NCBI RefSeq assembly: GCF_016765585.1
Contig: NZ_JAESWC010000018.1
Coordinates: 310,001 to 374,000 of the forward strand
Direction: 5' to 3'
Source of the DNA: Clostridium rhizosphaerae
Lineage (GTDB): Bacteria; Bacillota; Clostridia; Clostridiales; Clostridiaceae
DNA length: 64,000 nt
Position 1 is the stretch's first letter; every line of letters begins with the position of its first letter. This document shows positions 7,101-10,915 of this stretch, one piece after another. The notes under the pieces are model-generated. The model was not told where the DNA came from. It searched no databases and saw only the letters and a program-made list of their open reading frames with translations. The position numbers were made by a program, and so were the translations under genes.

Positions 7101-8525
7101 TTAGTGAGGAAGAAGTATAAATCTTAGAATAAACAAAGCTGCCAATATATATATAATAGGGTGTACTTCCTTACGTTTTCCTGTCGCTAATTTTACTATT
7201 GGATAGAATATTATACCTGATGCTATTCCATTTGCTATACTGTAGCTAAAAGGCATAATTGCTATTGTAAAGAAAACTGGCAGTGCTTCAGTAAAATCGC
7301 TAAAGTCTATTTCTTTAATTGCTCCAAGCATTAATGCTCCAACAATAACTAATGCTGGTGCTGTTGCCTCTGGTGGAACAATCCCTACAATTCCACTGAA
7401 GAATAAGGAAAGAACAAATAAAATTCCAACAGTAAAGGAAGTCAGTCCAGTTCTTCCTCCTTCAGTAATACCTGCTGTAGATTCAACACAAGTTACTAAG
7501 GTGCTGGTTCCGAGCAATGAACCAAAAGTAGTTGCAACTGCATCGGAAAGCATTGCTTTGTGCATGTTTTTAACCTTACCATCAGGTTCTAGCATATTTG
7601 CCTTTTGTGCTGTTCCAACTAGTGCCCCTATAGTGTCAAATAAATCTACCAAGCTAAAAGTTATAATAACCATTAGGACACTGCTCAGCGCCCCCACAAC
7701 TCCAACACCTCCATGACCTAACAATCCTTTGAAATCTAAGTGAAATAAGGTTGGAGCTATAGATGGTGGAGCACTTAAAATCTTTACGCCTGAGAGATTT
7801 GTGATTCCCATAGGTATTCCTATTATCGTAGTTAACAGTATTCCTAAAAGCATAGCTCCTTTAATTCCTCTAGCCATTAAAATTGCTGTTATTGTTATTC
7901 CTATTATAGTTAAAAGAACTCTTACATTAGTAAAGTTACCAAAAGACACAAGTGTATCTGGATTTGCAACAATAATACCACCGCTTTTAAGCCCTATAAG
8001 AGCTATAAATAATCCTATTCCTCCTGAAATTGCAAGCTTCAAATTATGCGGCAGTGCATTTACTATTTTCTCTCTTATTGATGTTACTGTTATTATAATA
8101 AATAGAATTCCAGATATAAATACCGCCGCAAGTGCCTGCTGCCAGCTGTACTTTAATGTTATACAAACACTAAAAGTAAAGAAAGCATTAAGTCCCATTC
8201 CTGGTGCTAGTACAAAAGGAAGATTTGCATATAAAGCCATTATAAAAGTACCAATTGCTGCTGATATGCATGTAGCTGTAAACACAGAAGCAACTATTGG
8301 ATCATTAAGGGCATTAAAGGCTGCTGCAGCATCTCCTTTAACTCCATTAAGATTCATACCCGCAAATCTTAATATATTGGGGTTAACAAAAATAATATAA
8401 GCTACAGTTATGAAAGTAGTTATACCAGCTAATATTTCAGTTTTTAAATTAGTATTATTCTCTGAGAGTTTAAAAATTCTCTCAAATAATGACTTTTTTG
8501 TATCCTTAGTGTTATCACGATTCAT
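7101..8525 (-). CDS. NCS2-family purine (guanine/hypoxanthine) permease
   Basis: 474 residues with about 12-14 membrane helices. It belongs to the AzgA/PbuG branch of nucleobase:cation symporters: NPNILRFAGMN near the N-terminus, the PFVLAPGMGLNAFF motif near residue 105, and GALVGTAQKANML in the middle. It imports guanine and/or hypoxanthine. The guanine-class riboswitch in the leader supports a purine substrate and predicts repression when guanine is plentiful. The ATG follows TGGAGG. It is monocistronic, with a terminator at 7075-7094. Confidence 0.92.
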   Translation of the reverse strand: MNRDNTKDTKKSLFERIFKLSENNTNLKTEILAGITTFITVAYIIFVNPNILRFAGMNLNGVKGDAAAAFNALNDPIVASVFTATCISAAIGTFIMALYANLPFVLAPGMGLNAFFTFSVCITLKYSWQQALAAVFISGILFIIITVTSIREKIVNALPHNLKLAISGGIGLFIALIGLKSGGIIVANPDTLVSFGNFTNVRVLLTIIGITITAILMARGIKGAMLLGILLTTIIGIPMGITNLSGVKILSAPPSIAPTLFHLDFKGLLGHGGVGVVGALSSVLMVIITFSLVDLFDTIGALVGTAQKANMLEPDGKVKNMHKAMLSDAVATTFGSLLGTSTLVTCVESTAGITEGGRTGLTSFTVGILFVLSLFFSGIVGIVPPEATAPALVIVGALMLGAIKEIDFSDFTEALPVFFTIAIMPFSYSIANGIASGIIFYPIVKLATGKRKEVHPIIYILAALFILRFILLPH

Positions 8526-8571: not shown

Positions 8572-8650
8572 GGACTATGTGTAAATCCAATAGCGGAAAT
8601 GAAATTCTAAAATAAAAATAATGAGGCTACTAAGGATTCACCCATAGTCC
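8572..8650 (-). promoter_or_regulatory. Long alternative hairpin in the riboswitch expression platform
   Basis: On the minus strand, GGACTATGGGTGAATCC (8650-8634) can pair over 17 positions with GGATTTACACATAGTCC (8588-8572), with a G-U pair and one mismatch. The upstream strand includes the 3' side of aptamer helix P1, so the two structures exclude each other. A T-rich run (ATTTTTGTTTTT) follows about ten bases later. This is probably the switching element of the purine riboswitch. Which state terminates is not clear to me. Confidence 0.6.
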
Positions 8651-8709
8651 AAAGATTTACGGCCTTTGTGTAGAAACTCTCGAACCCTATTATCGAGAAT
8701 ATATGGATG
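8639..8709 (-). promoter_or_regulatory. Purine riboswitch aptamer, guanine class
   Basis: The minus strand shows P1 as CATCCATA / TATGGGTG (8 bp), P2 as TCTCG / CGAGA, the conserved J2/3 GTTTCTAC, P3 with loop GCCGTAAA, and the J3/1 sequence GGACTAT. The base that pairs with the ligand (position 74 in B. subtilis xpt numbering, after GA) is C, which specifies guanine or hypoxanthine rather than adenine. The permease gene begins about 115 bases downstream. It is the main content of the gene-free stretch 8526-8910. Confidence 0.93.
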
Positions 8710-8910
8710 GGATATTCAATTTTCTATGGGTAAATATTATCATCTCATTCTACAAAAGTCAACAATATTTTCAATTTGCATATCTGCTTTCTACGCTAAT
8801 TTTGATTAAATTATACATTCAAATCATAAAACTTTAATTTTAACTTTAAAAACTAAATAATAACAGCTATACTCTATATGTATTTATAAAAATATAAGGG
8901 GGATTTTACT

Positions 8911-9330
8911 TTGCTTAATATAGTTGTAATTGATGGTCAAGGCGGCGGACTTGGAAAATCAATAATTAGTAAATTAAGAACTGAGTTCTCTAATGAAATA
9001 AATATTACTTCTCTCGGAACAAATTCCCATGCCGCAAAAGCTATGCTAAAAGCTGGTGCTAACTCATCATATTTTGGTGATGAGTATATAACTAATTACA
9101 TAGATAAGAATGATATAAGCTGCTTGATTGCACCTATAGGTATTTTATGTACTGGTGGTTTAAATAATGAAGTTACACCTAACCTTTCAGAAGCTGTTTT
9201 TAAAAAGGAATGCACAAAATATATAATACCTTTAAGAAAACATGGCTTTTACATACCTGGAACCACAAGCTTAGAAATAAAAGATATACTTAATGAGATT
9301 ATTTACGATATAAAAAATGCCAAGAATTAA
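8911..9330 (+). CDS. DUF3842 family protein
   Basis: 139 residues. The N-terminus has a beta-strand followed by VIDGQGGGLGKSI, a glycine-rich loop like that of nucleotide-binding folds. The rest (GTNSHAAKAMLKAGAN, APIGILCTGGLNNEVTP) matches my memory of the DUF3842 family of Clostridia. Function unknown. It starts at TTG, with AAGGGGG 6-7 bases before it. Its 3' end overlaps that of the convergent permease gene by four bases inside a shared hairpin. Confidence 0.75.
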   Translation: MLNIVVIDGQGGGLGKSIISKLRTEFSNEINITSLGTNSHAAKAMLKAGANSSYFGDEYITNYIDKNDISCLIAPIGILCTGGLNNEVTPNLSEAVFKKECTKYIIPLRKHGFYIPGTTSLEIKDILNEIIYDIKNAKN

Positions 9331-9346
9331 TTTCTTGACATTTTTT
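9312..9346. terminator. Bidirectional terminator overlapping both stop codons
   Basis: A 15-position stem, AAAAAATGCCAAGAA / TTCTTGACATTTTTT, with one C-A mismatch. The stop codons of the DUF3842 gene (9328-9330) and the Ni/Co permease (9327-9329 on the minus strand) both lie in the loop. Confidence 0.8.
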
Positions 9347-10289
9347 TCACCAGCTTCAATAATAAAAATATTATTAGAATCCCTGCTGCTGCAGAGACTA
9401 CATATCCTAAAATTTCATTTACTCCTCGCAAATTGTAATCTGGCATAATTGCATTAAAATTAAAGCCATTTTGCATTCCTTTCGGTATAAATCCTAATAT
9501 GTCTTTTATTTCATCAGTGCCCCATTCTCCCCAAGCAGTTCCTGAAGCTAAAAGTCCTATGGGTGATAATAATACAAGTCCGATTATTAAATTATATATT
9601 GGTTTTAATTTTATTTTTTCACCTTCGTATATGCTGTCTGGAGAAACCTTCTTAATATAGCTGTATATTCCCAATGTTATAATTCCTTCTAATACTCCTA
9701 CTACTAATAAATGAGGTATCATCATAGCAGGTATAGATACTTTTAATCCATAAGGACAATATAATGGCAATCCAGCTGAGTCTTTAAAAAGCAAAGGTTG
9801 AATCCCAAACTCAATTGCAGCCGCTAAAGCCGCTAAATTAACACCTATATAGCTTGCTGCAAAAACTGCTGCAAGTTTACCTTTCTTACTATTAAATCTA
9901 TCACTTACATATTTATAAATCAAATATCCTGAAAACGGCATAATAAACGCCATATTGAAACAATTGGCTCCAAAAGCTAATATTCCCCCATCTCCAAAAA
10001 ATAAGGCTTGTATAAGCAATGCTGTAGTAATTGATATAGATGCTGCATAAGGACCTATCAGTATTGCCGCAAGTACGGCACCTACAGCATGTCCCGTAGT
10101 TCCTCCTGGCAGAGGTATATTAAACATCATAATTAAAAATGAAAATGCAGCACATACCCCAAGAAGAGGCAGCTTTTTTTTCTTAAAGTTTTTATTTACT
10201 TTAATTATTGATTTTTTCCAAGCTGGAATCATTGCGGCTCCTAAGACAGCGCAAGTTGATGGACTTAAAAAATTATCTGGTATATGCAT
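9327..10289 (-). CDS. ECF-type nickel/cobalt permease (CbiM/NikM with fused C-terminal CbiN/NikN-like part)
   Basis: 320 residues. It begins MHIPDNFLS, the hallmark of CbiM/NikM proteins, which bind the metal through the N-terminal amine, His2 and another His; His67 in GGTTGHAVGA fits that role in NikM. About six or seven membrane helices follow. The C-terminal 70 residues (after residue 250) hold an extracytoplasmic stretch and a last helix, resembling a fused PDGLE/NikN domain. No CbiQ (T component) or CbiO (ATPase) gene adjoins, so partners must be elsewhere. ATG after GGGGGAAG. A regulatory leader lies directly upstream. Confidence 0.87.
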   Translation of the reverse strand: MHIPDNFLSPSTCAVLGAAMIPAWKKSIIKVNKNFKKKKLPLLGVCAAFSFLIMMFNIPLPGGTTGHAVGAVLAAILIGPYAASISITTALLIQALFFGDGGILAFGANCFNMAFIMPFSGYLIYKYVSDRFNSKKGKLAAVFAASYIGVNLAALAAAIEFGIQPLLFKDSAGLPLYCPYGLKVSIPAMMIPHLLVVGVLEGIITLGIYSYIKKVSPDSIYEGEKIKLKPIYNLIIGLVLLSPIGLLASGTAWGEWGTDEIKDILGFIPKGMQNGFNFNAIMPDYNLRGVNEILGYVVSAAAGILIIFLLLKLVKKMSRN

Positions 10290-10316
10290 TTGTCTTCCCC
10301 CATTTTTAAAATAAAA

Positions 10317-10404
10317 AAGGTAGAGCTATTAAACTCTACCTTCGTGGTAAACAGTATAAAACACTTAATAAAACTATCACATCTTAATAAAACCTTCGTG
10401 GTTT
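10317..10404 (-). promoter_or_regulatory. Tandem-hairpin leader with intrinsic terminator (candidate antitermination switch)
   Basis: Reading the minus strand: hairpin 1 (10404-10390) is AAACC-ACGAA-GGTTT; hairpin 2 (10350-10336) is TTACC-ACGAA-GGTAG, with the same pentaloop and the same CC/GG closing pairs; then a terminator (10342-10317), AAGGTAGAG / CTCTACCTT followed by TTTTTTATTTT. The 3' side of hairpin 2 is the 5' side of the terminator stem, so only one can form. This is the layout of two-hairpin antitermination leaders (for example ANTAR targets). The loops are five bases, not the six with A1 and G4 known for ANTAR, so the ligand is open. Confidence 0.7.
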
Positions 10405-10504
10405 AATAAAATTATAACAATTTATATAAATATATTCAATATATATTAGTTATATCCTATTAAATATAAAAGCAATTACAAATATTTGATATTTCTATTT
10501 TCTA

Positions 10505-10915
10505 TTAATAGTTTTCTAAGGAAAACGCCCCAAATAAATATGTTATTCTTTCAATAATGCATTTACTTATTAAGCTTACTATGTCATTATAGTTTTTTAT
10601 TTTCACTAAATATTCTTCAAAGTTAGAACATATATTAACCTTATAAACCTTTGGCATACATTGGCTGGCTTTGAACTCCATAATTGGCAGTTGTTCCTTA
10701 ATGTGTCTATATATTTGTATTTCTGGTGCATAATTAAGCACTAAAGCACTTAATTTTTCTATCTCTTGTTTTATAGAATCTGTCAAGAATACATCACAAC
10801 ACTCTATATCAATAGAATATCCATATTCTTTATCTTCAAAGTTTTTGGTTCTGCTCTTAACAAATATTTTCACGATAGAAACTTCATCCGCTTCGGTATT
10901 ATAAAGGTGTCCCAT
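10505..10915 (-). CDS. Hypothetical protein, 136 residues
   Basis: Not recognised. It is soluble, slightly acidic and without signal peptide or membrane helix. It has five Cys, including a CC pair near residue 40 (IDIECCDVF), and alternates short strands and helices. The start ATG follows AAGAAGG at eight bases. It stands alone between the Ni/Co permease leader and a group of very small genes on the same strand. No terminator or partner gene points to a role. Codon use and a good ribosome site support it being real. Confidence 0.6.
   Translation of the reverse strand: MGHLYNTEADEVSIVKIFVKSRTKNFEDKEYGYSIDIECCDVFLTDSIKQEIEKLSALVLNYAPEIQIYRHIKEQLPIMEFKASQCMPKVYKVNICSNFEEYLVKIKNYNDIVSLISKCIIERITYLFGAFSLENY

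What the first reader, a model, noticed from the sequence alone, without database searches (positions are those of the whole stretch)
10317..10404. Tandem identical-loop hairpins before a terminator in the Ni/Co permease leader
Two hairpins with the same CC-ACGAA-GG loop lie 39 bases apart. The second shares its 3' strand with an intrinsic terminator just ahead of the cbiM/nikM-type gene. This mutually exclusive layout is that of dual-hairpin antitermination systems (ANTAR/EutV is the known example), but the loops do not match the ANTAR rule of six bases with A1 and G4. The linker also repeats CTTAATAAAAC. It may be a protein- or metal-responsive switch of a kind I do not know.
Basis: partly seen in the sequence, partly recalled or inferred. 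Interest (0 to 1): 0.74.

Follow-up and report, generated by a model that had tools for sequence, protein, structure and literature searches.

The report
Twin-hairpin nickel-uptake RNA switch
A conserved pair of small RNA hairpins sits in front of nickel-uptake genes in many clostridia and some bacilli, looks like an on/off switch for transcription, and travels with an unstudied protein that may operate it.

Summary
On the minus strand, before cbiM, two hairpins share the loop ACGAA; the second competes with an intrinsic terminator. The pair recurs in 44 of 206 same-family genomes and, with loops such as ATGAA or AAGAA, elsewhere in Clostridia and in two Bacillus genomes. Stem covariation is strong (123 double-changed cells; 0 of 500 shuffles reach it). 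Of 50 family copies, 48 precede cbiM/QO, nik, NicO, ECF-S, FmdE-like or larC genes. The element tracks one protein family of unknown function, DUF3842 (window 8911-9330): 42 of 44 element genomes have it against 22 of 162 others, also within genera. ANTAR does not track it; the window's genome has neither ANTAR nor NikR matches. Best reading: protein-dependent antitermination that works like ANTAR dual hairpins but with another loop and another protein, probably DUF3842, switching nickel uptake. Element, regulon and association rest on comparison; RNA binding and metal response are inferred. Many DUF3842 genomes lack a detected element, so DUF3842 has other roles or partners.

The parts
10411..10439 (-). 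promoter-like site TTGAAT-17-TATAAT; expected start near 10404 (inference), so HP1 would form at the 5' end of the transcript
   Evidence: consensus scan; a TATAAT-like box (5 of 6 or better) lies close before HP1 in 43 of 48 leaders, shuffled mean 26.4, max 34
10390..10404 (-). HP1: first hairpin, AAACC-ACGAA-GGTTT
   Evidence: sequence; changes on both sides in 6 of 6 pairs of this helix across relatives
10352..10389 (-). linker between HP1 and HP2, not conserved in sequence or length
   Evidence: alignments A1, A4
10335..10351 (-). HP2: second hairpin (antiterminator), TTTACC-ACGAA-GGTAGA
   Evidence: sequence; helix 2
10306..10343 (-). intrinsic terminator sharing the 3' strand of HP2, with U-run
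   Evidence: scan; predicted to exclude HP2 and to be 9.2 kcal/mol more stable here (row L003)
10333..10407 (-). match to the covariance model of the twin-hairpin family
   Evidence: 55.2 bits with model R3, built without this sequence
9327..10289 (-). cbiM with PDGLE domain, Ni/Co ECF transporter component, the gene behind the leader
   Evidence: PF01891 1.7e-63, PF13190 1.3e-13; NF005598 over its cut-off
8911..9330 (+). DUF3842 protein (139 aa), candidate trans-acting RNA-binding regulator, tail to tail with cbiM
   Evidence: PF12953 6.7e-34; co-occurrence with the leader

Best explanation
The leader is a transcription antitermination switch for nickel (perhaps nickel/cobalt) uptake. Left alone, the nascent RNA forms the terminator and cbiM stays off. 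A trans-acting protein recognises the A-N-G-A-R loops of HP1 and HP2, binds both hairpins (probably as a dimer), holds HP2 and so blocks the terminator: genes on. The protein is most likely DUF3842, whose gene lies beside cbiM. The simplest logic is that it binds RNA when nickel is scarce and lets go when nickel is plentiful. Shown by comparison: the RNA element and its helices, the nickel-centred set of genes behind it, and the association with DUF3842. Predicted by folding: that HP2 and the terminator exclude each other. Inferred: RNA binding by DUF3842, its oligomeric state, and the metal signal.
For: RNA: HP1 6 of 6 and HP2 3 of 5 pairs with changes on both sides; 90.7% of cells paired against 70.4% in shuffles and at most 45.1% in slid controls. 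Switch: in 42 of 48 leaders HP2 bases re-pair downstream in the minimum-energy fold; forcing HP2 costs a median 9.15 kcal/mol (the 48 were chosen to have a T-run). Regulon: 48 of 50 family placements precede cbiM or cbiQO (31), an ECF S-component of unclear substrate (6), nik ABC genes (4; one followed by carbonic anhydrase and urease genes), NicO (3), FmdE-like genes (3; two followed by metal-type ABC genes, one at a contig end) or larC (1). Partner: 42 of 44 element genomes have DUF3842 against 22 of 162 others, p 4.7e-25; stratified by genus p 7e-11; class sample 19 of 21 against 96 of 320, p 4e-8. Among family genomes with a full-length cbiM-PDGLE homologue, 7 of 7 with the leader and 0 of 11 without it have DUF3842. 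HypB, as a marker of nickel use, associates far less (odds ratio 3.3 against 134). DUF3842 is within about 6 kb of an element in 31 of the 42 and more than 300 kb away or on another contig in 11 (places), so linkage alone does not explain it. Starting from DUF3842 genes, leaders with loop ATGAA were found, also in Bacillus. No ANTAR or NikR match in the window's genome.
Against: No binding or expression data. DUF3842 resembles Rossmann-like nucleotide-binding domains, not a known RNA-binding fold. 96 of 115 DUF3842 genomes of the class sample have no R2 match at E up to 0.05. DUF3842 of Desulfobacterales sits among ParA, ParB and LytB genes without this leader. Of nine order genomes without a leader seen before cbiM, four still have DUF3842. 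Element without a DUF3842 match: G058 and G136, G343 and G521, and G051, 64% complete. Candidate metal residues C80, C101 and H111 are invariant only in the Clostridium subfamily and mostly differ in the other homologues shown.
Confidence: 0.57

Rival explanations
1. The twin hairpins are a riboswitch aptamer that binds a small molecule directly, as guanidine-II does; DUF3842 makes, modifies or handles that molecule and therefore co-occurs.
For: Two small hairpins with near-identical loops are the architecture of guanidine-II (passages of PMC5486947). DUF3842 has a Rossmann-like, enzyme-compatible fold.
Against: The C-G loop-loop pairs that build the guanidine-II pocket cannot form in ATGAA or AAGAA members. 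Each hairpin conserves about five loop bases and little else, which is small for a lone aptamer. Loop-to-loop spacing runs from 25 to 68 nt in the aligned leaders and is over 100 nt in L113, L114 and L117.
Confidence: 0.2
2. Another, unidentified RNA-binding protein is the antiterminator, and DUF3842 is a nickel-metabolism protein that shares its fate.
For: G058, G136, G343 and G521 have the element but no DUF3842 match; DUF3842 also occurs without the element.
Against: DUF3842 is the most frequent neighbour that is not a transporter part (cluster c1 in 22 of 40 fetched regions; one region, L084, and some others were short) and is near-universal in element genomes. I did not screen other protein families beyond ANTAR, HypB and NikR.
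Confidence: 0.15
3. The RNA senses Ni(II) or Co(II) directly, as a metal riboswitch.
For: The genes behind it are nickel/cobalt-type.
Against: Stabilising the hairpins would switch an uptake gene on, the wrong sign for a direct metal sensor (inference). No match to any Rfam riboswitch at the leader. It would not explain DUF3842.
Confidence: 0.05
4. It is a DNA operator repeated at the promoter, not an RNA element.
For: ACC-N5-GGT is partly palindromic and one copy overlaps the expected transcription start.
Against: Loop bases stay while stem bases change on both sides together; HP2 competes with a downstream terminator in 42 of 48 leaders.
Confidence: 0.02

Closest known systems
ANTAR dual-hairpin antitermination (EutV, NasR, AmiR)
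   Same: two short tandem hairpins with conserved loops and a variable linker; the second hairpin competes with an intrinsic terminator; a protein is expected to bind both loops
   Different: loop is five bases A-N-G-A-R, not six with A1 and G4 (rule from passages of PMC3369931); no ANTAR match in this genome; partner appears to be DUF3842; controls nickel-type uptake genes
guanidine-II (mini-ykkC) riboswitch
   Same: twin hairpins with nearly identical ACGR-type loops
   Different: five-base instead of four-base loop; the C-G kissing pair is not conserved; no guanidine exporter genes seen behind the inspected copies; no Rfam match
NikR nickel repressor
   Same: expected physiological role, control of nickel uptake
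   Different: NikR is a DNA-binding repressor; no match in this genome
NiCo (czcD) and cobalamin riboswitches
   Same: metal or cobalt related leaders in Firmicutes
   Different: different architecture (recalled); no Rfam match at the leader

Membership tests
ANTAR dual-hairpin element | hexanucleotide loops with A at 1 and G at 4 | tested here: not met
   loop is five bases, A1 N2 G3 A4 R5, in both hairpins of all 48 aligned leaders (these were chosen with a pattern for that loop); in 17 class loci found by model, by my reading 15 first and 17 second hairpins have A-N-G-A-A
ANTAR dual-hairpin element | an ANTAR-domain protein in the genome | tested here: not met
   no PF03861 match in the window's genome; 19 of 44 element genomes have a match against 105 of 162 others (two of the 124 matches are below the family's cut-off)
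ANTAR dual-hairpin element | second hairpin overlaps an intrinsic terminator | tested here: met
   window and 42 of 48 leaders
guanidine-II riboswitch | match to the Rfam model | tested here: not met
   no match at gathering score; none listed at E up to 5 for the window leader
guanidine-II riboswitch | ACGR tetraloops that pair C-G with each other | tested here: not met
   pentaloops; position 2 is C, T, A or, once, G
NikR regulon | nikR gene present | tested here: not met
   no PF08753 match in the window's genome; 2 of 18 genomes searched have a match just over the cut-off
protein-dependent antitermination by DUF3842 (proposed) | leader and protein co-occur beyond relatedness and shared function | tested here: met
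   controls ANTAR and HypB
protein-dependent antitermination by DUF3842 (proposed) | DUF3842 binds the hairpin loops | not testable with these tools
   needs purified protein and RNA

The most novel reading that the evidence does not exclude
DUF3842 is the founding member of a new family of RNA-binding, metal-responsive antiterminators: a small Rossmann-like protein that reads A-N-G-A-R loops of paired hairpins and governs a nickel regulon (uptake systems, urease, nickel-pincer cofactor genes) in Firmicutes that lack NikR.
Probability: 0.5. Interest if true: 0.9.

Novelty: new variant of a known kind. Interest (0 to 1): 0.8.

Why it matters
[quoted passage not shown] This element and its likely partner are a concrete candidate for such control in clostridia and bacilli. 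It would also give a function to a widespread domain of unknown function, and add a second protein family to dual-hairpin antitermination, for which ANTAR is the example I know. The word DUF3842 occurs in none of the papers of the library searched.

Tried and rejected
Rejected: ANTAR, guanidine-II, DNA operator, the linker repeat CTTAATAAAAC as a functional part. The guanidine-IV variant paper PMC9788692 (abstract, introduction and the first of three parts of the results seen) describes two hairpins joined by a pseudoknot, most often before transaminase genes, not this element. Weak Rfam matches of the leader (best by score DUF3800-I, 23.3 bits against a cut-off of 44.2) look like chance. I first thought loop base 2 (C or T) followed the DUF3842 subtype; class-level leaders mix C, T and A with the core subtype, so I dropped that claim. 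No solved structure is related to DUF3842 by sequence at E up to 1. Foldseek and VIA-align gave only general Rossmann-like matches, which do not test RNA binding. PADLOC found nothing for DUF3842. PMC2965389 and PMC11477304 were searched for terms only (passages); neither passage describes this element.

Limits of the counts: loop counts in A4 are biased because those leaders were picked with a loop pattern and a T-run, 48 of the 62 listed there. Two rows, L075 and L086, are misaligned in HP1 in A4 and were kept. A5, used for R3, drops five rows of A4 (L003, which is the window, and L066, L075, L086, L184). The leader pair of L131 seen is not in the R2 list. Paper searches for earlier reports; I saw no description of this element in their listings.

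Full report
What is there. The cbiM-PDGLE gene (9327-10289) and its leader are on the minus strand. Reading 5' to 3' on that strand: a promoter-like TTGAAT-17-TATAAT (10439..10411), HP1 AAACC-ACGAA-GGTTT, a 38-nt linker, HP2 TTTACC-ACGAA-GGTAGA, and a terminator that begins in the HP2 loop and uses its 3' strand. The leader folds far better than its shuffles. Rfam 15 has no match at the leader at gathering score (only weak matches).

Conservation. Of 30 loci fetched around homologues of the gene, 16 carry the same pair on the gene strand; L032 has one hairpin only. Aligned, HP1 changes on both sides in all six pairs while the loop stays. With 48 leaders (A4) 90.7% of cells pair, against 70.4% in shuffles and at most 45.1% when one strand is slid; 123 cells change on both sides, against 35.2 in shuffles; 0 of 500 shuffles reach the observed value in any of the five measures. 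These 48 were chosen with a loop pattern and a minimum of paired bases next to the loop (at least three in HP1, two in HP2, seven together), so loop counts and the innermost pairs are partly selected. A model made from 43 leaders without the window's sequence finds the window leader with 55.2 bits.

Switch anatomy. In 42 of 48 leaders the minimum-energy fold from HP2 to the first U-run pairs HP2 bases downstream; in the other 6 HP2 is present. Forcing HP2 costs a median 9.15 kcal/mol over the 48 (a T-run was a condition of selection). The terminator takes either the 3' strand of HP2 (as in the window) or its 5' strand and loop as well (for example L021, L171, L188). A TATAAT-like box lies just before HP1 in 43 of 48 leaders, against a shuffled mean of 26.4 and maximum of 34. 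So the default is probably off, and something must hold HP2 for read-through.

Regulon. Model R1 gives 50 placements in 44 of 206 family genomes at E up to 0.01. By my reading of downstream frames, clusters and profiles they precede cbiM or cbiQ-cbiO-cbiM (31), an ECF S-component of unclear substrate (6), nik ABC genes (4, one set followed by carbonic anhydrase and urease gamma, beta and alpha genes), NicO transporters (3), FmdE-like genes (3: L068 with a FecCD-type ABC transporter, L086 with nik-like ABC genes, L075 at a contig end), larC (1), a short methyltransferase frame (1, L070) and no same-strand gene nearby (1, L040) (not every frame was profiled). In the class sample the 17 new loci precede cbiM, an ECF S-component, or the DUF3842-nik operon, judged by sequence likeness; in L211 cbiM starts about 500 nt or more downstream. 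Nickel is the common theme: NicO, LarC, nikA with urease, and HypB as a frequent gene just upstream.

Partner. In 40 fetched regions DUF3842 (cluster c1) is present in 22, in each on the strand opposite to the element. In 206 family genomes 64 have DUF3842: 42 of 44 with the element, 22 of 162 without (Fisher p 4.7e-25). Stratified by genus, seven genera are informative and the association remains (p 7e-11; genus labels partly assumed, 183 of 206 genomes used); counting genera alone it is 17 of 18 against 11 of 28 (p 1.6e-4). The control families behave differently: ANTAR 19 of 44 against 105 of 162, HypB 36 of 44 against 93 of 162, p 0.003. Among family genomes with a full-length cbiM-PDGLE homologue, 7 of 7 with the leader and 0 of 11 without it have DUF3842; the 11 upstream stretches were re-read for any A-N-G-A-R pair and have none. 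In the neighbouring family the leader was seen in nine genomes, eight with DUF3842; the ninth is 64% complete. Of nine other order genomes without a leader seen before cbiM, four have DUF3842; these were not searched with the model. In the class sample 19 of 21 R2-positive genomes have DUF3842 against 96 of 320 (p 4e-8). By the places printed, DUF3842 lies within about 6 kb of an element in 31 of 42 genomes, and more than 300 kb away or on another contig in 11.

Going the other way. I fetched the neighbourhoods of DUF3842 in 20 regions, 19 of them from genomes with no R1 match, and 80 named loci (the tool kept 80 of more). Among eight loop patterns tried as controls on the 80 named loci, twins appeared in 0 to 3 loci each, against 7 for ACGAR; for the fuller pattern ATGAAGG, 5 loci against 0 for 13 scrambles, but ACGAAGG in that frame also gave 0 because of the stem rule used, and short loop patterns such as AAGAR or AGGAR gave 5 to 6 loci, so the ATGAA leaders rest on their position, stems and terminators rather than on that count. 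In Firmicutes the core-type DUF3842 is often the last gene of cbiMQO or nik operons, or the first gene after the leader. Of the 80 named loci, 11 have an R2 match at E up to 0.01 within the fetched flanks, several of which are in the model's own training set; the Desulfobacterales and Nitrospirae loci have none, and the Desulfobacterales ones lie among ParA, ParB and LytB genes.

How it most likely works. The hairpin pair with conserved loops, an antiterminator helix that is weak by itself, and a co-travelling protein are the logic of ANTAR antitermination (passages of PMC3369931), but neither the loop rule nor the protein is ANTAR. Guanidine-II shares the look (passages of PMC5486947), yet its C-G loop contact cannot form in ATGAA or AAGAA members. 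A metal riboswitch would have the wrong sign. I therefore favour DUF3842 as the binder, at about 0.57, with the metal response as the least certain step. The RNA element as a conserved antitermination leader I hold at above 0.9.

Against. DUF3842 is much commoner than the element (115 against 21 genomes in the class sample), five genomes have an element without it (G058, G136, G343, G521, G051), its fold is that of nucleotide-binding enzymes, and there is no experiment. The strict filters used for large searches lose weak elements, so the counts of genomes without an element are upper bounds.

Novelty. Dual-hairpin antitermination is a known kind; the loop, the partner and the nickel regulon are new to Rfam 15 and to the searches made, which cover only open papers. 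[quoted passage not shown]

Noticed in passing
window 8625-8726 (-): Purine riboswitch (RF00167, 78.7 bits) before a xanthine/uracil-type permease (7101-8525).
   Followed up: no
window 9327-9330: DUF3842 (+) and cbiM (-) overlap tail to tail by 4 bases.
   Followed up: no
window 10505-10915 (-): 136-aa reading frame just upstream of the leader, no Pfam or NCBIfam match, with a related frame at the same place in G001 (same genus; cluster c49).
   Followed up: partly
L067, L081, L092, L100: An ECF S-component of unclear substrate (folate-family match below its cut-off) and a class I methyltransferase follow the leader together; a metal-chelate system is possible.
   Followed up: no
L069: Two leaders in one cluster: before nikB-nikC-nikA-type genes, and before a second nikA-like gene followed by carbonic anhydrase and urease genes.
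   Followed up: partly
L150, L189, L193, L200 and similar: In Desulfobacterales DUF3842 sits among ParA, ParB and LytB genes (profiles run on L200 only), with no twin-hairpin leader found; its role there is unexplained.
   Followed up: partly
L107, L116 upstream of nikB-type gene: Possible HP1 variant with a long stem and loop G/T-CGAA-T, HP2 normal: loop drift or a different recognition.
   Followed up: no
L040 / L091: A well-formed leader with no same-strand gene close behind it, next to DUF3842; perhaps a remnant after transporter loss.
   Followed up: no
L171, L184, L188, L068, L086: FmdE-like genes recur with DUF3842, the leader and nickel-type transporters; their role in nickel handling is unexplained.
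   Followed up: partly
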